Below are positions 54,478 through 64,000 of a stretch of DNA of 64,000 bases, piece by piece; position 1 is the first letter of the stretch, and each line of letters begins with the position of its first letter. The position numbers were made by a program, and so were the translations under genes. The stretch spans positions 501,001 through 565,000 of the forward strand of contig JADJYM010000012.1 in the NCBI GenBank assembly GCA_016719755.1. The letters run 5' to 3'. This DNA is from Novosphingobium sp. GTDB taxonomy: Bacteria; Pseudomonadota; Alphaproteobacteria; Sphingomonadales; Sphingomonadaceae. The notes under the pieces were generated by a model, which saw only the letters and a list, made by a program, of their open reading frames with translations, was not told the DNA's origin and did no database searches.

Positions 54478-54535
54478 TTTCGCGAGGTCGCGTCCGTCAA
54501 GGTGGTGTAATTTCGGCTGTGGCCGTGGGCCATCG

Positions 54536-55749
54536 TCAGGCGGCTTTGGCGGTGATGTGTAGGGGCTGATTTTCCTCCTCGATCATGGGTTGGTTGAGTT
54601 CGGCCATGCCTTCGATCTGCATGTATCGGTGCTGGAGCTGCCACTCGTCGTTCTGCTCCATCAGCACAGCCCCGACGAGGCGGATGATGCTGTCTTCGTT
54701 CGGGAAGATTCCGACGACGTCGGCGCGGCGCTTGACCTCCTTGTTGAGCCGCTCGAGCGGATTGGTTGAGTGTAACTTCGTGCGGTGCTGGGTGGGAAAG
54801 CCGGTGTAGGCGAGCACGTCGGTTTCGGCCTCGTCCATGCAGGCGCCGAGCTTGGGCCAACGGGTGCGCAACTGGTCGGCGACCTGTCGCCAGACCTGCG
54901 TTGCGCTTTTCTGATCGGGCTGCAGGAAGACCTGGCGGATCGCGGCGGCGACGACAGTGTTCTGGCCCTTGGGCACATAGGACAGGGCATTGCGCATGAA
55001 GTGCACCCGGCAGCGCTGCCAGGTGGCGCCCATGACGCGGGTGATCGCGCCCTTGAGGCCCTCGTGAGCATCGGAGATGACCAGCTTCACGCCGGTAAGA
55101 CCGCGCCGAACAAGGTCCTTCAGGAAGTCGGACCAGAAGACCTCCGCTTCCGAGGGGCCGATATGCAGGCCGACGATCTCGCGCCGGCCCTCGGTGTTGA
55201 CGGCCATGGCGATTATTGCGGCAACGCTGATGATCCGCCCGCCTTCGCGTACCTTGAGATAGGTGGCATCGAGCCAGAGATACGGCCATTCGCCGGTGAG
55301 CGGGCGTTTCAGAAAGGCATGGACGCGCTCGTCAATGTCCTTGCAAAGCTTGGAGACGGTGGACTTGGAGATGCCGGTCATGCCCATGGCCTGGACGAGT
55401 TCATCGACCCGCCGGGTGCTGACCCCGCCGATCCACGCTTCCTGGATCACCGCAACCAGCGCTTTCTCGACCATCTTGCGGGGCTCAAGGAAGCCCGGAA
55501 AGTAGGACCCAGCACGCAGCTTGGGGATTTTCAGGTTCAGCGTGCCTACCCGGGTATCCAGCGAACGGTCGCGATAGCCGTTGCGCCAGGTCGCGCGCTC
55601 GCTGCTGCGTTCGTGGCGACCCGCGCCGATCAGGCCATCAACGTCGGCCTCCATGATCAGCTGCAGCACGTTCTCGGCGATGGTGCGCAAAAATCCGGTT
55701 GGCCGCCCTTCGCAGCAAGCTCTTCGATCAGTAATCTGTCCTCGGTCAT
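54536..55749 (-). pseudogene. IS256-family (mutator-type) transposase with a one-base frameshift
   Basis: From MTEDRLLIEELAAKGGQPDF (ATG 55749) the frame breaks at an A5 run (55689-55693). It resumes RTIAENVLQLIMEADVDGLIGAGRHERSS to the stop at 54536. The DDE region is complete: YLWLDATYLKVREGG (Asp), VKLVISDAHEGLKGAI (Asp), STNPLERLNKEVKRRADVVG (Glu). A missing base in the run restores about 404 aa. Possibly a sequencing error; otherwise the N-terminal DNA-binding part is lost. Confidence 0.85.
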
Positions 55750-55828
55750 CGGGAACTCCTCTTCGTCACGGTTGAAGTGTGCAAACTCCACCATAACGAT
55801 GAACCCGGTGGCCACCAGCGACGCCGCA

Positions 55829-55858
55829 TTCCGGGGTGGGGCATGCCCCACCCCGGAA
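55829..55858. repeat. 30-bp perfect palindrome upstream of the IS256 transposase
   Basis: Each half (TTCCGGGGTGGGGCA and its complement) mirrors the other around GCATGC. It lies between the right end of the IS256 and the transposase start, where a hairpin would block transcription or translation entering from outside. The function is inferred. Confidence 0.6.
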
Positions 55859-55920
55859 TACACCATCGCCTACACCGGAAATTACACCACGAGCGCGGAC
55901 GCTAACTTTCGCGAGCCTGG

Positions 55921-56514
55921 CTAAGACCTTGCGAAAGCAAGCAGCGGCTCGATCTCGCCACCATCCGCTGCCCTCAGCGCCGCGACATAAGCTCTTCTGG
56001 TTTCACCCGGATCGACCAGATTGGCCCTGCCCCAAGTGAAGCGGGGCTGGCCCATCTCCGTTGCGAGCAGGTCAGCGACCAGGCGGGAGTGCCGACGATT
56101 GCCGTTGGGGAATGGGTGTATGGACACCAGCCGGGGGGAGAAGCGGATCGCAATCTCGTCCGGGGGGTAGGTGGCGTTGTCTACCCAGTACCGCGCATCG
56201 TGGACGAGCTCTCGTACCGCCATGGGAATGCGGTAGGCGTCGATGCCGATATTGCGCGGAGTCTTGCGATACTGGCCTGCCCACTTCCAGACTTCGCCGA
56301 ACATCCGTTTGTGCAGATCCCGCAGGAATGCATCGTAGAGCACGTCAACATTGCGCGCGCGCCGGAGCCAGAGGCTGGCCCGGGTGATGTTGATCTGCTC
56401 GGCTTCGTTCAGTTCGGCTCTGGTGGTGATGTAGGTCGGAATAAGCTGTTCGCGTTCTTCCGCTTCGAGCGGCGTATTGGCTTCGTCTTCACCGTCGTAG
56501 AGAGGATCGGTCAT
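55921..56514 (-). CDS. mobile mystery protein B (Fic-domain protein)
   Basis: 197 aa Fic/DOC-fold protein. The Fic motif region HPFPNGNRRHSRLVADLLAT corresponds to HPFxxGNGR with the second Gly replaced by Arg. LYDAFLRDLHKRMFGEVWKWAGQYR precedes it. This matches the family TIGR calls mobile mystery protein B, which accompanies mystery protein A on mobile elements. Fic proteins transfer AMP or similar groups to targets; the HTH partner likely controls expression. The start overlaps the A gene as ATGA. Confidence 0.85.
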   Translation of the reverse strand: MTDPLYDGEDEANTPLEAEEREQLIPTYITTRAELNEAEQINITRASLWLRRARNVDVLYDAFLRDLHKRMFGEVWKWAGQYRKTPRNIGIDAYRIPMAVRELVHDARYWVDNATYPPDEIAIRFSPRLVSIHPFPNGNRRHSRLVADLLATEMGQPRFTWGRANLVDPGETRRAYVAALRAADGGEIEPLLAFARS

Positions 56515-56978
56515 TCATCCTCCCACAGGTAGCGCAGCGGCTCATTCAGGATCTCGGCAGTCAGACGCGCAAGTTCCTCCTGCATCTGCCCAGTGGTTAG
56601 AGACTGGTTCTCCAGCATCATGCCCTGTGCAACGGGACCGAACTGATCGAGAGCTTTGGCTGCCGCGCGGTCGCGCACGATCTCGTCGAGCGGTGCCTTG
56701 GGCACGAGCGCGTAAACAAGCTGGCAGTTGAGCGCCTCGGCAGCCTCTCGCAGGGATTTGAGGGTAGTGGCGTCGGTTGCCTCCGCCTTTTCCAGCGCGA
56801 TAATACGCGACTGCACCACGCCCATGCGCTTGGCGAGCTGGCGCGATGTCATGCCCAGCGAATCGCGGATAGCGCGTATCCAGCCCCCGTGCGGACGCGG
56901 GAGGCTTTGTTCCCGCAGAAAGGCGAGCTTCCTGTCGAGGTTTTTTCGAGCCAGTTCGGCTTGCCGATCCTTGATCAT
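56511..56978 (-). CDS. mobile mystery protein A (HTH regulator/antitoxin-like)
   Basis: 155 aa from ATG 56978, which has GGAGGA 7-8 nt upstream; a longer start at 56996 lacks this. An XRE-type helix-turn-helix lies at about 35-75 (RDSLGMTSRQLAKRMGVVQSRIIALEKAEA). It is preceded by a helical RQAELARKNLDRKLAFLREQ and followed by QLVYALVPKAPLDEIVRD, typical of mystery protein A. It probably represses the A-B operon from the adjacent palindrome. Confidence 0.87.
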   Translation of the reverse strand: MIKDRQAELARKNLDRKLAFLREQSLPRPHGGWIRAIRDSLGMTSRQLAKRMGVVQSRIIALEKAEATDATTLKSLREAAEALNCQLVYALVPKAPLDEIVRDRAAAKALDQFGPVAQGMMLENQSLTTGQMQEELARLTAEILNEPLRYLWEDE

Positions 56979-56994
56979 CGCAGTCCTCCGCTGC

Positions 56995-57010
56995 ATTTAT
57001 GATCATAAAT
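56995..57010. promoter_or_regulatory. palindromic operator of the mobile mystery operon
   Basis: ATTTATGATCATAAAT is a perfect 16-bp palindrome 17 bp upstream of the A gene start. Further GATCATT/TGATCA-like half-sites occur up to about 57090 in this AT-rich tract, so multiple operator copies are likely. Binding by the HTH protein is inferred. Confidence 0.6.
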
Positions 57011-57154
57011 AAGTGATTTTGTCAAAGGGTAAAGATCATTAATAAATGGTCATATGACACCATTATGATCACTTTTATGTGATTACCATTCGAAGTTTGA
57101 GCGGCGAACGTCCGCGACAGAGCTTGTGGGCGCAACGGCGCGTGCCATATCCTT

Positions 57155-59275
57155 CTACGCGGTAATCCTCAATTCAGATCCGATTTCAATGACATCGGCA
57201 TCATCTGGAACCTCGAGCTGCATTTCGTCGATCCAGCTCGAAACCCAGTCTCGTCTCGCTTGAGACCAAGCATCGAATATCGGTAGCTTCCGATAGATCG
57301 CGCGAGTTCGAATGATCTCATCGACAATGGCGCGGACGATCGCAGGGACTCGATGACGGTTCAGCTCCGCCCTGACGAGCCCTTCGTCGGCGCTGAGGCT
57401 AGCAATGATCGATCTGCCATAACCTGGTTGCTCCAACTGATCTTCAAAAGCTCCGATCAGCGTGGCCAAAATATCTTGCAGCCCTGTGGTGACGAAGGGG
57501 GCAGAAATGACGACTTGGTCGTTTATCTGCCGGTTATGCCACGCCAAAAGGAATTGGCTGACCGAACGAAAGATATCGAGAAAATTTGCCAGCCCGCCCA
57601 GATTTCCTCGATCGACATGCCGCTCAAGGCGCGTACGGATATGTCGCTGGACGAACTCCCAGATAGCTTCGCGCAATTCGGCGACCGACGCGCCGCTTGA
57701 CCCAATAGCCCAATGTTCGGGAACGTCGCCCGAAAAAGGATCGCGCGCTCGCCAGCGCCCAAAACCTCCACTGCCCGAAATGGCACCGTCGTGGAACCGA
57801 ATGTTTGTCCGGTTGATGAAATCGATCGCCTCGTCGATTCCGCCAAGAGCATCGACGTATTCAATAAGGCCGTCGCCACTTTCGATCACTCTCTGCAGCC
57901 TATTAGCTGCGGCGGATCCTCCTCCACGATCGCGCAGCAACCGTGGCAGTTGCTTTACGGAACAAAGCTGACTCTTCACTTCGCAACCGTAAAGCATGGC
58001 ACGAAGCTGACCCACTGCCGGCTGGTCGAACTTGGCTTGGTCATCGTCCTTCAGTGCCAGGACGAAATCAGCCTTCTCCACGCCGAGGTTCCAGGAGAGA
58101 GTTGGCAGCGTGTCACCACGTTTGAATATTCGCAATGAAAGGTCAGTCGCGTCTGCGGGTATCGCTGATGTTGCCAGAAGCTGACCTTCTTCGGTCAGGA
58201 CAAGCGATTGCAGCTTCAACCCGTGAGGCTCCTGGACCGGAGGGGCGGGTTCAGCAATCGCCACCGACATGAATCTTTCGGGTTCAATCTTCGCAAACTT
58301 CAGGTCGTCTTGCTTCAACGCCCCGGCTGCGTTCTGTTTGGTCGCGAACCAGAGACATGCCTCGCTATTGCCGCCAGAAAGAGCGGCATTGGACATGTTC
58401 GCGCTCCCGGCGAGCCAATAAGTGGATTCTGGTGTTTGGAAGGCGAGTGCCTTTGCGTGCATCTTTCGCCCAGCCTTTTTCGATGTGGCCGAAATCAGTT
58501 CCAGATCTCCAATCGAATCGCGCAGCTCCACAAACCTCTCTACCGGTAAATTGCTATAACCGGACTGGCTGACGATCTGGATGGTTGCTGTGGGGAAAAG
58601 CGCCCTTATCCGCTCAACCATACGAAGGTTGCTGTCGAAAAATGGGGCGAGCATCACGACCTTGCGAACATCTGTGTTACTCATGCGCGCGACTATCTGT
58701 GGCCAGAGCGGACCATCGTGACTGGAGAGCAGTTCGATGTCCTGCGTGCTGACATCGGCATCGCCTAGCCAAGAAAAGGCGTTCTCGAGCCGATCGAATA
58801 TATCCTTCTTCAGCCACTTCGACACCGGCCCCGCTTCTTGGGCGTAGCGCTGGAATTGACGAAATATCGAAGCGATCAGGGGGGCATTTGCGTTTCGATC
58901 GTCGCCGCTCGACGACTCCAGCGTCGAGATCAACTCGAAGTTATGTCCTGTTCCGGCAGATGTGCAGTTATTGCTGCCAACCGACGCAATCACCTTTTCC
59001 TCGCCGATCGAAAGGTACAATTTCGGATGGAACACTCCGCCAGTTCTACTGATAGGAATAACGAAGTAGTTCCGATCGAAACCTTGCCCCTGCTTGTTGT
59101 TTTCGAGGATGTCCCGGTAGCGGTCATTGTCGATGAAAACGATCACCGTAGCGCCATCGAACGCCGGAGTGGGGAGTATGCGCCGCTCGAAAAAGTGCGA
59201 ATCAAAATCATATGTAGCAACGAACGCAAACTTACCCCTGATCTTCTTCAAGAACTCAAGGAAATCGACGGTCAC
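57155..59275 (-). CDS. phospholipase-D-like (PLD) nuclease/phosphodiesterase-type protein
   Basis: 706 aa from GTG 59275, chosen because it overlaps the upstream stop as GTGA and has GGAGGA 9 nt before it; a longer frame to 59332 overlaps that gene. Two HxK-type PLD half-motifs: VFHPKLYLSIGEEKVIASVG (His-Lys at 83-85, then GSNN at 100-103) and KMHAKALAFQTPESTYWLAG (His-Lys at 273-275, then GSAN at 290-293). The two catalytic halves are at the N-terminus, as in PLD nucleases and DISARM DrmC. The C-terminal 350 residues are unfamiliar. Lower-GC, AT-ending codons unlike the core genome. Role in DNA cleavage is inferred. Confidence 0.75.
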   Translation of the reverse strand: MTVDFLEFLKKIRGKFAFVATYDFDSHFFERRILPTPAFDGATVIVFIDNDRYRDILENNKQGQGFDRNYFVIPISRTGGVFHPKLYLSIGEEKVIASVGSNNCTSAGTGHNFELISTLESSSGDDRNANAPLIASIFRQFQRYAQEAGPVSKWLKKDIFDRLENAFSWLGDADVSTQDIELLSSHDGPLWPQIVARMSNTDVRKVVMLAPFFDSNLRMVERIRALFPTATIQIVSQSGYSNLPVERFVELRDSIGDLELISATSKKAGRKMHAKALAFQTPESTYWLAGSANMSNAALSGGNSEACLWFATKQNAAGALKQDDLKFAKIEPERFMSVAIAEPAPPVQEPHGLKLQSLVLTEEGQLLATSAIPADATDLSLRIFKRGDTLPTLSWNLGVEKADFVLALKDDDQAKFDQPAVGQLRAMLYGCEVKSQLCSVKQLPRLLRDRGGGSAAANRLQRVIESGDGLIEYVDALGGIDEAIDFINRTNIRFHDGAISGSGGFGRWRARDPFSGDVPEHWAIGSSGASVAELREAIWEFVQRHIRTRLERHVDRGNLGGLANFLDIFRSVSQFLLAWHNRQINDQVVISAPFVTTGLQDILATLIGAFEDQLEQPGYGRSIIASLSADEGLVRAELNRHRVPAIVRAIVDEIIRTRAIYRKLPIFDAWSQARRDWVSSWIDEMQLEVPDDADVIEIGSELRITA

Positions 59276-61035
59276 GAAACTACGTCCTCCAGAAGGAAGT
59301 TGAGCATTTCCTGGCCATCCGGCGTCAGGCATTGACCTTTTTCCGGATCGCGGTCGATCAGCCGCAAGTCTCTCAAAACCTGCATCGCGCTTGGGAATCG
59401 GGGGTTTCCGGAATCCACATCGTCACGGGTGAGCCCCGTCCCCACGACCATCGGGCCATCAACTCGGAATAGCGGGGGACTTCCGCCAAACCCCTTTTCG
59501 TAACTCATTGTTTCGTGCTGACGCACCACAAATCGGCTTACAACCCGATACAAAATTTCCCGGTTTGGCGTGTTCCACCAGTCTTCGAAATCCAAAGCGA
59601 GCATGCGCGCGACCGTTGGCATGGCGACGTCAGCACTTGGATCGAATACCTTCTGGGCGTTCCATCCTTTATGAGCATCGGCAACGGTCAGATCGTATCG
59701 AAGCATCAGGCAGTATAGCAACATAGCGGCGACCGCCGCGCCCGCGGACCCAGAAACCAAGTCCTGCTCGATAAGCGCGTCACGGAGAAATCGTTCGACG
59801 AACGGATTTGATGCGAAAATCTCGGATGAACCAGCAACGCCGCTTGTCTGACCGGGAACGTCAATCGCCAGCAATGCCAAGGAAGCGGCCGGGGTAAGAT
59901 CCAAGAACGGGACGGGAAACTCTACGCCGAATAGCTCGCCGAGCACTTCGGCTGCTTCGACATTGTCAAACGCCTCAATTACGTCTGCGACAGCCCTACC
60001 GGCTGGGTAATTCAGGATCGCACGAACAAAGCTGGCCAGCAGCGATTCTAGGGCGATTGTCAGATAGTTATGGAACTGGAAAATGCGCCAGCGCTCAGAT
60101 ATATCGATCAGCGAAGGCAGCAATTCCACCGACACGGCCTCGTCTTCCTCGTCGAAGATCATCCGATAGTATGCCAAGTCGCCGAACGATCGCTCGTCGA
60201 GTTCCACACCTGCATCAGCTGTGACCAAAGTCGCCCATAAAAGGAGCAGCAGGCTCATGCGTCGCCGATAATGGGAATTAAGCTGGGAGTCGCTATCGGT
60301 CGAGAAAAACAGATCGCGCAATGGTAAAAGGTCGAACTCCTCTGCCGCTCGCAATTCACACAGCCCTGCCGAGGCGCCGAATTCCTCGAGCACATCCAGA
60401 TCCATCGATCCGCCTTCTGGCCCCATTTTAACAAATTCTGTTCCCGCAACCGCTTGACCGAAGGCGGTGGCTAATTCGCGCCCCTTGGCGGACAATTCGC
60501 CAGAGGTCAGGTTGTTGGATTGGCCGTTTTCGTCCTCATCGTCGGCTGTATCAGGGCTCGCGCTCTCCGCGAAAATGCCAAGATTGATCAGGGACCCCTT
60601 GTACGCAGCGAACCCACTGGCGTTGTCGCGCAGATGGCTCCATTGGCCAAGATCAATCGAGCGCTTACTTGAATTCGCCGCAAGATCGACCGCTCGATTG
60701 GAACCCTGCAGAGACCCACCTTCACACGGATTGCCGTTGTGATGAAGGACCGCACCCAGCGTCATTGCCCTTTCGTCAATCAAGACAAACCGCATAAGCT
60801 GGTCGAAGTCGCCCTTGCCCCTCGTTCGATCTTGGGCGCGCTGGAATGCCCATGGGAAAAAAGAATAATAACGGGCGCGCGGCGTGATCGAGGTAATGCA
60901 ATGTAACAATTCAGCGCCTAGGCGTGCACCAACCCGAAGCGTCATGCCCAGCGGATCACCGGTACCCGATGACGGCAGCTCGCTGTTCCAATTGAGCAAC
61001 GCGACACCGGTTGGAAGGCGCTTGAGATTTAGCAA
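59272..61035 (-). CDS. unrecognised 587-aa protein paired with the PLD gene
   Basis: 587 aa from TTG 61035, after a GGGGG stretch. An ATG 30 codons further in is an alternative. No transmembrane segment or nucleotide-binding motif was recognised. The N-terminal ITPRARYYSFFPWAFQRAQ recalls the TRARYF-x-PW signature I associate with DUF6361-like proteins encoded beside PLD genes in defence loci; this is memory, unverified. The C-terminus (MQVLRDLRLIDRDPEKGQCL) resembles a winged helix. It overlaps the PLD gene by 4 nt. Its composition, like the PLD gene's, is unlike the core genome. Confidence 0.7.
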   Translation of the reverse strand: MLNLKRLPTGVALLNWNSELPSSGTGDPLGMTLRVGARLGAELLHCITSITPRARYYSFFPWAFQRAQDRTRGKGDFDQLMRFVLIDERAMTLGAVLHHNGNPCEGGSLQGSNRAVDLAANSSKRSIDLGQWSHLRDNASGFAAYKGSLINLGIFAESASPDTADDEDENGQSNNLTSGELSAKGRELATAFGQAVAGTEFVKMGPEGGSMDLDVLEEFGASAGLCELRAAEEFDLLPLRDLFFSTDSDSQLNSHYRRRMSLLLLLWATLVTADAGVELDERSFGDLAYYRMIFDEEDEAVSVELLPSLIDISERWRIFQFHNYLTIALESLLASFVRAILNYPAGRAVADVIEAFDNVEAAEVLGELFGVEFPVPFLDLTPAASLALLAIDVPGQTSGVAGSSEIFASNPFVERFLRDALIEQDLVSGSAGAAVAAMLLYCLMLRYDLTVADAHKGWNAQKVFDPSADVAMPTVARMLALDFEDWWNTPNREILYRVVSRFVVRQHETMSYEKGFGGSPPLFRVDGPMVVGTGLTRDDVDSGNPRFPSAMQVLRDLRLIDRDPEKGQCLTPDGQEMLNFLLEDVVS

Positions 61036-61308
61036 ATGACCCCCAGCAAATTCAGACGGTTCACGATATCAAACAATCCTCCGCGTTGCCTCGCTCCAAT
61101 ATTGCCTCAAGCCGCGCGGCTGGTCGAAGCTGGAAGTGCCGATAGGCTTCTCCATTCGGGTTATCTTTGTTGGATGGTTCGAACGCCCTGCGGACACGTT
61201 TGCGTCAGTAGTCAGTGTTGCTTCGGGTTATGCTTAAGACCGACCGCAAGGGCTAAAACAGCGCCCTCGCTCTTCTCTTAGTTAGCAGTGAATAGGTTCG
61301 TCGAGGCA

Positions 61309-62511
61309 TCAATTGTTGGCCTGGCCTCGCTTTAGCTGATCAAGGTAATCGGCCCACCATTGCGCCATCTCGACGCGTTCGGCCCAATGCGCACCGCGAT
61401 GGTAAGCTGCCCGAACGGCATCCTTATCCTTGTGAGCCAATGCCCTTTCGATGGCATCGGGAGACCACTTGCCCGACTCGTTGAGCAAGGTGCTGGCCAT
61501 GGCCCGGAAGCCATGGGCAGTCATTTCGTCACCGGCATAGCCAAGCCGCCGCAGCGCTGCGTTGACCGTGTTCTCGGACATCGGTGATTTCGGCGTCCTG
61601 ATCGACGGGAAAACATACTTCCCGCCGCCGGTGAAAGCCTTCGCCTCCTTCAGCACAGCGATAGCCTGCCTGGACAAGGGAACTGCGTGTTCGAGGCGGG
61701 TCTTCATCTTTGCGGGAGGGATGCGCCACACCGCATCGTCGAGATCGATCTCCCGCCATTCCGCGTGACGCAGTTCGCCTGGCCGGACAAATACCAGCGG
61801 CGAGAACAGGAGCGCATACTTGGTTGTCGGATACCCCTCATAGCCATCGATCGCGCGCAGCAGTTCGCCGACGCGCCGGGAATCGAGGATCGCGGCGAAA
61901 TGCTTTGGTTTGCGACTGGCGAGCGCGCCGCGCAGATCACGGGTCGGATCGACCTTGGCTAACTGGTTGGCGACCGCGAACCGGAACACCTGTCCAGCGA
62001 ACTGGAGCGTCCGGTGAGCCTTCTCGTCGTTCTTGGACGCTTCATAAGGCCGGACAGCCTCCAGAACCTCTACCGGCTCGATCTCGACAATCGGACGGTT
62101 GCCCAGCTTCTTTTGCAGCAGGCTCAGAAACCACTCGCGCTTGCGGACCGTCGCTGCCGCCAGCCCATCCCGCCGGTTCTTCTCAATGTAAGCTTTGGCG
62201 ACCGCGCTGAAGGTGTTCAGTGCGCTGATCTTGGCAGCAATCTTGTCGCGGCGTTTCTGATCAGCCGGATCGATACCTTTGGCCAGGCTCCCCCTGGCCG
62301 TATCGCGGGCATCGCGAGCGTCACGGAGCTTCAATTCAGGATAGGACCCCAAGGCAAGCTTCTTCTCGACCCCGGCGCCATTGCGGAATTTCATTCGCCA
62401 AAGCCGTCCGCCCGAGGGGGTCACGAGCAGATAAAGGCCCTTCTCGTCGGCAACCTTGTAAGCCTTGGCTTTGGGTTTGAGGGCGCGGATCGCAGTCTCT
62501 GTCAGAGCCAT
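61309..62511 (-). CDS. tyrosine site-specific integrase (P4 type, DUF4102)
   Basis: 400 aa from ATG 62511, within an inverted repeat. The N-terminal arm-binding DUF4102 domain is LTETAIRALKPKAKAYKVADEKGLYLLV. Catalytic residues: Arg in VRPGELRHAEWREI, HxxR in TAHGFRAMASTLLNE, His in ALAHKDKDAVRAAYHRG and Tyr in AYHRG. It integrates and excises an island at an attachment site, usually a tRNA; no tRNA lies next to it here. Downstream lie the PLD pair and the mobile mystery genes. Confidence 0.93.
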   Translation of the reverse strand: MALTETAIRALKPKAKAYKVADEKGLYLLVTPSGGRLWRMKFRNGAGVEKKLALGSYPELKLRDARDARDTARGSLAKGIDPADQKRRDKIAAKISALNTFSAVAKAYIEKNRRDGLAAATVRKREWFLSLLQKKLGNRPIVEIEPVEVLEAVRPYEASKNDEKAHRTLQFAGQVFRFAVANQLAKVDPTRDLRGALASRKPKHFAAILDSRRVGELLRAIDGYEGYPTTKYALLFSPLVFVRPGELRHAEWREIDLDDAVWRIPPAKMKTRLEHAVPLSRQAIAVLKEAKAFTGGGKYVFPSIRTPKSPMSENTVNAALRRLGYAGDEMTAHGFRAMASTLLNESGKWSPDAIERALAHKDKDAVRAAYHRGAHWAERVEMAQWWADYLDQLKRGQANN

Positions 62512-62565
62512 TTGGGGGCCTTTCGAATTTGGGGTTGGCGAAGGCCCCCACAAAAGGCCCCCAAA
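62511..62565. promoter_or_regulatory. integrase promoter with 13-bp inverted repeats
   Basis: TTTGGGGGCCTTT (62511-62523, including the start codon region) and AAAGGCCCCCAAA (62553-62565) are exact inverse copies; a further AAGGCCCCCA half-site is at 62541-62550. These could be arm-type or operator sites for the integrase or an excisionase. Function inferred. Confidence 0.5.
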
Positions 62566-62650
62566 TCGTCGCGGCTGCAGGCGAATTTCAGCGAACCTTG
62601 GCGGCCAAGCCAAGGCAATTTATCGCAGATTTCCGGGGTTTTAGCAACCT

Positions 62651-63109
62651 TCAGCGGTCAATGGCGAAGGTGAAGGTGGTGCCGCTTACGTGAGGCGCAG
62701 ATGGATCGGCTGACTTGTCGCATGTCGAGTGCTCGTTTTTGGCGGATTTGCGTGTGCTGAGTTCGAGTCCGCTTACGTGACCCACACTCGTGACCGAGTG
62801 TTCAAGGAGAGCCTTGGCCAGCGCCTCTTTCGTTGCCGGTGAACGCCCTTCGAGGTCGTCCAGTACGGCGTCGATCCAGCGACGATCAGCCTCGGTTGCC
62901 GCGAAGCCCGAAGGCCCCTGACCCCGCGTTAACGGTCTCGGATCATCCCGAAGAACATCACGGGCTTCGCCGATGTCGGGTGATGACTGGAGACCGTCCG
63001 GGTTATCAACCCAAGCAGCATCAGGAGACGCTTCTCCAGCCCCGTGGGAGCGTTCAGGGATGCTCGGCCCCATGATGCCGTCGATGCCCTCCGAAGCGTC
63101 CTCAGCCAT
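62651..63109 (-). CDS. hypothetical protein in the recombinase operon
   Basis: 152 aa, no recognised domain. Acidic and Pro/Ser/Asp-rich N-terminus, then a short helical segment EADRRWIDAVLDDLEGRSPATKEALAKALLEH. It starts 2 bp after the serine recombinase stop, so the two are probably co-transcribed. I do not recognise it and cannot suggest a function beyond the association. Confidence 0.5.
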   Translation of the reverse strand: MAEDASEGIDGIMGPSIPERSHGAGEASPDAAWVDNPDGLQSSPDIGEARDVLRDDPRPLTRGQGPSGFAATEADRRWIDAVLDDLEGRSPATKEALAKALLEHSVTSVGHVSGLELSTRKSAKNEHSTCDKSADPSAPHVSGTTFTFAIDR

Positions 63110-63111
63110 CC

Positions 63112-63710
63112 TCAGGCGGCTTTCTTAAGGTCGGTCATACGGGCCTTGATCCGGGAGACCGACCCCACACCGACCTTGGCCTTCTTGGCCGTGACCGAGA
63201 GACTGACGCCTTGAGCGAGCAGCTTCTCGACCTTCTTCACCTTCAAGGGATCGAGCCGTGGCCTTCCTGCTCGTTTTGTCGAACGAGCCAAGCCTGCCAT
63301 GATCCTCTGCCTCAGGATCGAACGTTCGAACTCGGCAAAGACTGAGAGCATCGAGAACATGGCTCGGCCTGCCGGTGTCGAGGTATCGAGCCCTTGTGTG
63401 TGGAGATAGAGATCGACGCCGCGTTCGTTGATCTCGCCAAGGAAGCTCACGAGATGCTGGAGGGACCTTCCGAGACGATCCACCGACCAGCATGCGATCA
63501 GGTCGATCTCCTTCCGCGCGACCATCTTCATGAGCTTGTCGTAGCCGGGGCGTTTGTCCCGGCCTTTGGCTCCTGAGATGCCTTCATCGGCAAGGGTCTC
63601 GACGATGTGCCAGTCGAGGCGCTGGGCGACGGCTGGAGTTCTTGAAGTTGGTTCTCGACGGTCTGCTGATCAGTCGAGACGCGGAGATAGAGGGCAACGC
63701 GTTTGGTCAT
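63112..63710 (-). pseudogene. serine recombinase (resolvase/invertase family) with a one-base frameshift
   Basis: From ATG 63710: MTKRVALYLRVSTDQQTVEN (catalytic Ser in LRVST) then a frame change near 63633. Adding one base joins LQELQ to AVAQRLDWHIVETLADEG and the long frame KLMKMVARKEIDLIACWSVDRLGRSLQH (catalytic Arg pair). It ends with an HTH (DPLKVKKVEKLLAQGVSLSVTAKKAKVGVG). Full length would be about 199 aa, resolvase-like. It precedes the hypothetical and the integrase. Could be a sequencing error. Confidence 0.83.
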
Positions 63711-63790
63711 CCATCCGGACTCTCACAGATTTGAGAATTGTCCAGAAAATGTGGCACGCTGGCGCACTACCGCATTGCGAGGAGCCGAAG

Positions 63791-64000
63791 ATGTCTCGAA
63801 CACCACCCTACTCAGGCACCACAGGGTACCGCGATCCAGTTTCGATTCTTGTCTTCAATAAGGAAGGGACCACAGTCTACTCGCGCTTGATCCGCCGAGT
63901 GCCTATTCGACTGGCTTTACGAGAAGGCGGCACCATCGACGTTGTGCGATACGACGGGCGCTACTGGCCGACGTACGAGCCCGAGACATTGCCCGACCAA
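63791..64000 (+). CDS. hypothetical protein (C-terminus off the right edge)
   Basis: An open frame of 70 codons from ATG 63791 (GGAG 7 nt upstream) to the edge, starting MSRTPPYSGTTGYRDPVSIL and including YSRLIRRVPIRLALREGGTI. No family recognised. Divergent from the recombinase. Confidence 0.45.
   Translation, partial: MSRTPPYSGTTGYRDPVSILVFNKEGTTVYSRLIRRVPIRLALREGGTIDVVRYDGRYWPTYEPETLPDQ

What the first reader, a model, noticed from the sequence alone, without database searches (positions are those of the whole stretch)
57155..61035. Unfamiliar two-gene PLD system in an integrase-bounded accessory region
A 587-aa protein of no recognised family and a 706-aa protein with two HxK PLD half-motifs are translationally coupled (GTGA overlap at 59272-59275). 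They lie between a tyrosine integrase and a mobile mystery pair, in DNA whose composition differs from the core genome. This is the typical setting of phage-defence or plasmid-exclusion modules. PLD proteins act as nucleases in DISARM (DrmC) and elsewhere. The N-terminal TPRARYYSFFPW of the 587-aa protein recalls DUF6361-like proteins, from memory. A two-component sensor/nuclease is the inference.
Basis: partly seen in the sequence, partly recalled or inferred. Interest (0 to 1): 0.78.

Follow-up and report, generated by a model that had tools for sequence, protein, structure and literature searches.

The report
Two-gene relative of Azaca defence
Two linked bacterial genes, one of them resembling a DNA-cutting enzyme, form a travelling unit that resembles part of a known virus-defence system but lacks its helicase gene, and that in many microbes sits beside other defence genes; what it does has not been tested.

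Summary
In detail: a 587-aa and a 706-aa gene, same strand, 4-nt overlap, two HxK half-sites, low-GC DNA, an integrase on one side and a mobile-mystery A/B pair on the other. "No recognised family" can be improved. Both proteins are remote relatives of the first two Azaca proteins. The PLD protein matches ZacB (E 3.9e-16; profile-profile E 7.9e-18). The Azaca helicase ZacC is absent. The pair is a conserved unit: the PLD gene directly follows in 73 of 80 genome loci, and both genes lie together in 21 of 21 plasmid loci examined, four in reversed order. Defence-type genes (by similarity to seed proteins) lie near 35 of 89 loci against 0 of 60 control stretches. Best reading: a helicase-less, Azaca-like two-gene defence module with a Tdp1-fold PLD protein and a helical partner. 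Nuclease activity and anti-phage function are inferred, not shown. New variant of a known kind.

The parts
59272..61035 (-). ZacA-like protein, 587 aa (P0002)
   Evidence: ORF; PADLOC ZacA E 0.0027 over residues 48-80; profile-profile with 5 ZacA: prob 88, E 3.1e-6, 51 columns; predicted helical fold pLDDT 87
60814..60972 (-). N-terminal block shared with ZacA/DUF6361 (residues 22-74); holds TPRARYYSFFPW at 60850-60885
   Evidence: D27, T51, R53, R55, Y56, W62 invariant in 61 aligned sequences
59278..59418 (-). possible C-terminal winged helix (residues about 540-586)
   Evidence: helix-strand-strand-helix in the model; weak Foldseek matches of 47-58 columns to ribosomal S19e (prob up to 0.90, E about 1-2); weak S19e sequence match and Sso10a; none significant
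57155..59275 (-). ZacB-like PLD protein, 706 aa (P0001)
   Evidence: PF13091 E 6.1e-7; PADLOC ZacB E 3.9e-16; Tdp1-like fold, Foldseek E 1.6e-10
59021..59029 (-). first HxK half-site, H83-P84-K85
58967..58978 (-). G100-S101-N102-N103 of the first half-site
58451..58459 (-). second HxK half-site, H273-A274-K275
58397..58408 (-). G290-S291-A292-N293 of the second half-site
59272..59275 (-). GTGA stop/start overlap
   Evidence: 4-nt overlap also in L002 and L022
61309..62613 (-). P4-type tyrosine integrase (type by recall); likely ATG start at 62511
   Evidence: Pfam; 56% identical to the integrase 1.7 kb upstream of the related pair in L025
55921..56996 (-). flanking mobile mystery A (56511-56996) and B/Fic (55921-56514); not counted as part of the module
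   Evidence: NCBIfam; B also matches the PADLOC candidate PDC-S04, E 9.1e-19

Best explanation
The two genes are a mobile two-gene anti-invader defence module, related to the ZacA-ZacB half of Azaca but working without a linked ZacC helicase. Shown: remote homology of both proteins to ZacA and ZacB; near-obligate linkage in the bacterial and archaeal loci examined; conservation of two PLD half-sites; enrichment beside other defence-type genes. Inferred: the PLD protein is a phosphodiesterase that cuts nucleic acid with one active site built from both half-sites in one chain, as in Tdp1; the coupled ZacA-like protein binds it, recognises invading DNA or an infection signal (its possible C-terminal winged helix is a candidate DNA contact) and holds or releases the nuclease; the outcome is destruction of phage or plasmid DNA, or of host DNA as abortive infection.
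For: Homology: ZacB E 3.9e-16 and profile-profile E 7.9e-18 over 293 columns; 55 of 55 aligned PLD proteins, P0001 included, match ZacB at E<=1e-5; 52 of 61 aligned partners, P0002 included, match ZacA at E<=0.01, best 1.4e-8; partner profile vs ZacA prob 88, E 3.1e-6. Unit: PLD gene directly downstream in 73 of 80 genome loci; both genes together in 21 of 21 plasmid loci examined, four with swapped order; distance matrices correlate r=0.94 over 80 pairs, 0 of 2000 permutations as high. Active site: two half-sites conserved in 55 aligned sequences; Foldseek best match Tdp1 E 1.6e-10; best PDB sequence match of the profile is 7clg, E 0.0013. Context: 35 of 89 loci with a seed-defined defence gene in the flanks vs 0 of 60 control stretches; 23 of 76 after dropping loci that supplied seeds, p 2.9e-7; pair between hsdS and hsdR; Pycsar genes about 5-8 kb away in L002; a CBASS-type E1-E2 gene upstream in L068.
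Against: No activity was measured. The ZacA link of the 587-aa protein rests on about 50 columns, and its fold has no PDB match at E<=0.001. 54 of 89 loci had none of the seed defence genes nearby. The seed list is short and was drawn from the test loci, related loci were not all removed (four duplicates were), and the 60 controls come from 10 genomes of the window's class only. Tyrosine-integrase seeds were not clearly enriched: 7 of 89 against 3 of 60. Beside the window pair the only defence-type match was mobile mystery B to the untested candidate PDC-S04. L022, the closest relative, sits between what read as ordinary core genes (my reading).
Confidence: 0.62

Rival explanations
1. Plug-in nuclease: the pair is an effector cassette that borrows a translocase from whatever DNA-motor system the host has (HsdR, DrmD/DpdE-like, UvrD-type, ZacC), and works in trans here.
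For: Translocase-type seed matches in the flanks of 30 of 89 loci; HsdR adjacent on the same strand in 6 loci; DpdE/DrmD-like helicase and DrmMI-like methylase upstream in L037; Azaca itself couples homologues to a helicase. A DISARM paper proposes recruitment of alternative PLD nucleases (PMC9142583, passages read).
Against: 59 of 89 loci have no such seed match nearby; the window's genome has no HsdM_N match and only weak ZacC-model matches, both in one helicase about 450 kb away. Embedding between hsdS and hsdR also happens to another system, DarTG2 (PMC12255303, passages read).
Confidence: 0.2
2. A reduced Azaca that has lost its helicase and is decaying or needs ZacC in trans.
For: Both proteins are ZacA/ZacB relatives.
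Against: No ZacC match of 60 bits or more near any of 89 loci; only weak ones, 19-27 bits, at 5 loci. Genuine ZacA (4 of 5 detected) and ZacB score only 20-24 bits against the family models, and the window genes are under purifying selection, so this looks like an old separate family, not a recent loss.
Confidence: 0.07
3. Tdp1-like enzyme acting on protein-DNA links, such as relaxase- or terminal-protein-capped ends of plasmids and phages.
For: Tdp1 heads the fold list; both half-sites have an H-to-N spacing of 20 residues, which I recall as close to the Tdp1 arrangement; copies occur on plasmids.
Against: Tdp1 has many PDB entries, and PPK1, PLD and PssA match too; the overlap covers part of the model (TM 0.31 on the query, rmsd 10.5 for the top hit).
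Confidence: 0.05
4. Not defence: an addiction module or a lipid-active PLD carried by mobile DNA.
For: The mobile context alone does not prove defence; PssA and PLD are in the fold list.
Against: Defence-gene enrichment; both genes are large; match to the PLD restriction enzyme RE_NgoFVII (E 0.0019, below cut-off) and to 7clg.
Confidence: 0.06

Closest known systems
Azaca (ZacA/DUF6361, ZacB/PLD, ZacC/helicase)
   Same: ZacB homology over about 290 columns with the same two half-sites; ZacA-type N-terminal block; same gene order A-B
   Different: No ZacC; partner is 587 aa rather than about 392-412 aa and is not matched by PF19888; no detectable similarity outside the regions named
PADLOC candidate PDC-M27 (M27B PLD protein)
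   Same: 39 of 55 aligned PLD proteins match M27B at E<=1e-5; P0001 only E 0.051
   Different: The M27C model matches a helicase; no model named M27A was reported for the 61 partners at E<=0.01
DISARM DrmC
   Same: PLD protein; 19 of 55 aligned PLD proteins match one DrmC model at E<=1e-5
   Different: P0001 only E 2.4e-4; no DrmA, DrmB or DrmMI among the five window neighbours scanned
PLD-helicase restriction enzyme SauUSI
   Same: PLD chemistry; profile match to 7clg, E 0.0013, a 953-aa chain that I take to be SauUSI from its length and by recall
   Different: SauUSI has its motor in the same chain and forms the site from two protomers (PMC7913695, passages read); here two half-sites lie in one chain and there is no motor
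Tyrosyl-DNA phosphodiesterase 1
   Same: Fold (Foldseek E 1.6e-10, TM 0.48 on the target); two half-sites per chain (recalled for Tdp1)
   Different: About 14% identity; extra C-terminal part; prokaryotic gene pair

Membership tests
Azaca | ZacB-type PLD protein | tested here: met
   E 3.9e-16; profile-profile E 7.9e-18
Azaca | ZacA protein (DUF6361, PF19888) | tested here: not met
   PF19888 not reported for P0002 with the limit at E 1; PADLOC ZacA 15.3 bits over 33 residues; remote profile link over 51 columns only
Azaca | ZacC helicase in the operon | tested here: not met
   none found beside the window pair; ZacC seed at 60 bits near 0 of 89 loci
Azaca | anti-phage activity | not testable with these tools
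   needs phage challenge
DUF6361 (PF19888) | score over the curated cut-off of 25 bits | tested here: not met
   no match for P0002, nor for the 5 relatives scanned (L012, L016, L018; L024, L019); two ZacA controls score 299.5 and 56.8 bits
PLD superfamily | PF13091 over cut-off and HxK motifs | tested here: met
   29.8 bits against a cut-off of 27; two HxK half-sites; fold
PLD superfamily | nuclease rather than lipid activity | not testable with these tools
   needs biochemistry
DISARM | DrmA, DrmB and a Drm methylase | tested here: not met
   not found among the five window neighbours scanned; DrmMI-like and DrmD/DpdE-like genes occur only at some relatives
Type I restriction-modification accessory | Hsd genes beside the pair | tested here: not met
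   own genome has 0 HsdM_N matches; Hsd seed matches at 14 of 89 other loci

The most novel reading that the evidence does not exclude
An old, unnamed two-gene immune module spread through bacteria and haloarchaea: a Tdp1-fold phosphodiesterase plus a large helical partner for which Foldseek finds no PDB match. It exists alone, inside type I restriction operons and beside DISARM/Dpd-type motors, and Azaca is then the branch that captured a helicase.
Probability: 0.35. Interest if true: 0.75.

Novelty: new variant of a known kind. Interest (0 to 1): 0.56.

Why it matters
Azaca is listed in defence catalogues, but the passages that I read in three papers only list it and give no mechanism (searches; passages). 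A helicase-free relative would make the core chemistry testable with two proteins. It would also bear on how PLD nucleases are exchanged between restriction, DISARM-like and Azaca systems.

Tried and rejected
Rejected: P0002 as a direct DUF6361 member. S19e, BchO and TetR hits as family assignments: weak, below cut-off; only the C-terminal winged-helix hint is kept. Dependence on a type I system in this host: no HsdM_N in the genome. att repeats within 55600-64000: three two-copy direct repeats of 16-24 nt, all imperfect, none convincing as att. A sigma-70 promoter or intrinsic terminator in 56900-61400: counts no higher than in shuffles. Phage carriage: no match to P0002 in the phage collection; 2 loci in viral contigs. 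The first genome-contig scan, with P0002 alone, found no relative; the scan with alignment A1 found 100, best 80 kept. No papers for DUF6361 or for tyrosyl-DNA phosphodiesterase with phage defense; search 57 for PDC-M listed mainly unrelated papers, and the one relevant paper (PMC12988326, passages) does not name PDC-M27, Azaca or PLD. Search 68 and one search were seen as listings only, apart from the papers named. The distance between the two active-site histidines was not measured, because the model coordinates were not among the files in the Python box.

Rows dropped: alignment A5 holds P0002 and 60 loci (59 of the 76 proteins listed, plus L096); A6 holds P0001 and 54 loci. Duplicates L033, L076, L093 and L096 were left out of the 89 loci; other closely related loci were kept, so the counts are not independent. 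Of 27 plasmid records with a PLD match, 21 were opened; the 6 left are of the same species as an opened record or match the query at the same identity and span as one.
Full report
What is there. On the minus strand, 59272-61035 encodes 587 aa and 57155-59275 encodes 706 aa; they overlap by GTGA. The second protein has H83-P-K85 and H273-A-K275. Upstream lies a tyrosine integrase (61309-62613), downstream the mobile mystery A and B genes. The pair is 55.1% G+C against 66.9% in window 1-49800. The host genome carries one copy of the PLD gene, and none of the five other genomes of the same genus that were searched has a match to the partner, so the pair is accessory. Two members of the host's family have contigs of the same length as records of Croceicoccus and Altericroceibacterium, so the host is probably one of the Sphingomonadales; that is inference.

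Family. Pfam gives PLDc_2 for the 706-aa protein (E 6.1e-7) and nothing useful for the 587-aa protein. PADLOC gives ZacB at E 3.9e-16 and ZacA at E 0.0027. To test this I fetched five genuine Azaca loci found with the ZacA model (6 strong matches and a weak one in 289 class genomes; regions). There ZacA is 392-412 aa and is DUF6361 (E 4.9e-89 and 2.5e-15 in the two scanned); a PLD-type protein and a helicase follow. Profile comparison links the PLD families over 293 columns (E 7.9e-18) and the partner families over 51 columns (prob 88, E 3.1e-6). Of the aligned proteins, 55 of 55 PLD proteins match ZacB (E<=1e-5) and 52 of 61 partners match ZacA (E<=0.01). Yet genuine ZacA and ZacB score only 20-24 bits against models of this family, and one of the five ZacA proteins is missed, so I treat this as a separate family, not Azaca.

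The pair is a unit. A genome scan kept the best 80 of 100 relatives. In 73 of 80 the PLD gene directly follows the partner gene. Of the other seven, two end at contig edges (L055, L056); L027 and L067 keep a downstream remnant that lacks roughly the first 280 and 440 residues; L026, L092 and L101 have none found. Searching from the PLD side, 27 plasmid records matched; 21 were opened and all 21 carry the partner, in L187, L192, L195 and L197 after the PLD gene instead of before it; in L195 about 0.7 kb with a short ORF lies between them. They include Halorussus and Halobaculum (archaea), Streptomyces, Mycobacterium avium, Myroides and Prevotella. Distance matrices of the two proteins correlate at r=0.94 over 80 pairs; the highest of 2000 permutations was 0.10; shared species history contributes to this. 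The window's partner protein belongs to a small group (L002, L022-L026) at 37-66% identity; the other relatives in the scan have best segments at 36% or less, mostly near 25%. No tree was built.

Context. I searched the flanks of 89 loci (1.15 Mb; four duplicates dropped) and 60 fixed control stretches (1.2 Mb, 10 genomes of the window's class) with the same seed proteins at 60 bits. At least one defence-type gene (HsdM, HsdS, HsdR, SNF2/DrmD-like, DrmMI, UvrD, helicase-nuclease, CD-NTase; ZacC gave none) occurs at 35 of 89 loci and 0 of 60 controls. Because the seeds came from these loci, I repeated it without seed loci: 23 of 76 against 0 of 60 (p 2.9e-7). Type I restriction genes: 14 of 89, or 8 of 76 without seed loci (p 0.009), against 0 of 60. 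Tyrosine integrases were not clearly enriched (7 of 89 against 3 of 60). In Myroides the pair lies between hsdS and hsdR, a site where another system, DarTG2, is known to be embedded (PMC12255303, passages read). In L037 a DpdE/DrmD-like helicase and a DrmMI-like methylase lie upstream. L002 has Pycsar cyclase and TIR effector genes about 5-8 kb downstream. L068 has a CBASS-type E1-E2 gene upstream; the CD-NTase beside it is my reading. L025 has an integrase 56% identical to the window's 1.7 kb upstream, and a type I restriction gene and a SIR2/ThsA-like gene downstream. In the window itself the only defence-type neighbour found is mobile mystery B, which matches the untested candidate PDC-S04 (E 9.1e-19). 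Against this reading: 54 of 89 loci had no seed defence gene, and L022 sits between what read as core genes.

Structure and mechanism. The partner model is confident (pLDDT 87, pTM 0.89), mainly helical, and has no PDB match at E<=0.001; a short C-terminal helix-strand-strand-helix resembles the ribosomal S19e winged helix weakly. The PLD model (pLDDT 85.6, pTM 0.69) matches Tdp1 best (E 1.6e-10, TM 0.48 on the target and 0.31 on the query), then PLD, PPK1 and PssA, which I recall as having two half-sites in one chain. The best PDB sequence match of the PLD profile is 7clg (E 0.0013), which I take to be SauUSI. The half-sites lack the Asp of classical HKD and have Asn 20 residues after His; I recall this as close to the Tdp1-type HKN arrangement. 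So the likely effector is a phosphodiesterase acting on nucleic acid, and the coupled partner is its likely regulator. None of this was measured.

Is a motor needed? Azaca has one; this pair does not. A motor-type seed match lies near 30 of 89 loci and none near 59. The host genome has no HsdM_N match; its only ZacC-model matches lie in one PLD-helicase protein (my reading) about 450 kb away. I therefore favour an autonomous module and give the plug-in model 0.2.

Literature. Azaca appears with 'defense system' in 12 papers of the library, seen as a listing, with passages read in PMC12278908, PMC10952713 and PMC12629846: these passages list it and give no mechanism. DUF6361 gives no paper. The original Azaca paper (Millman and colleagues, 2022) is recalled, not read. 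The preprint on defences embedded in other systems (Payne and colleagues, 2024) was seen only in a reference list. I claim no more than that I found no description of this two-gene family in these searches.

Changes made on checking: the PDC-S04 match of mobile mystery B, the integrase control and the L195 gap were added, the integrase start and the identity limit were corrected, and 'deduplicated' was narrowed to four duplicates dropped. None of these called for a change of the odds.

Noticed in passing
L122:3585-6686 (own genome, contig C12 about 111.6-114.7 kb): A 1033-aa protein with an N-terminal PLD-like HxK region and a helicase, beside ORFs of 531 and 380 aa that read like methylase pieces: a separate restriction-like locus in the same contig. 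Family names here are my reading of the sequence.
   Followed up: partly
window 55921-56514: Mobile mystery protein B (Fic domain) matches the PADLOC candidate PDC-S04 at E 9.1e-19, so the mobile mystery pair may itself be a defence candidate.
   Followed up: no
window 54481-55913: Stretch with a transposase gene (54536-55690) that has two near-identical copies (99.7-99.8%) further along the contig (L020), so the left side of the accessory region has been reshuffled by insertion sequences.
   Followed up: partly
window 62675-64000: 1.3 kb inverted duplicate (99.8%) in L020 16490-17815; it holds part of a serine recombinase that matches only positions 57-142 of the Resolvase domain.
   Followed up: partly
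L187, L192, L195, L197: The two genes occur in the reversed order (PLD first), still next to each other or 0.7 kb apart.
   Followed up: partly
L027, L067: Downstream PLD remnant lacks its N-terminal part, perhaps inactivated copies.
   Followed up: no
L012, L015, L017, L082: The pair shares a set of neighbours across four loci, perhaps one mobile element.
   Followed up: no
L117: The pair on a Mycobacterium avium plasmid is followed by a methyltransferase matching MTase_III and an annotated restriction endonuclease, with an AbiEii-type gene upstream. Described only.
   Followed up: no
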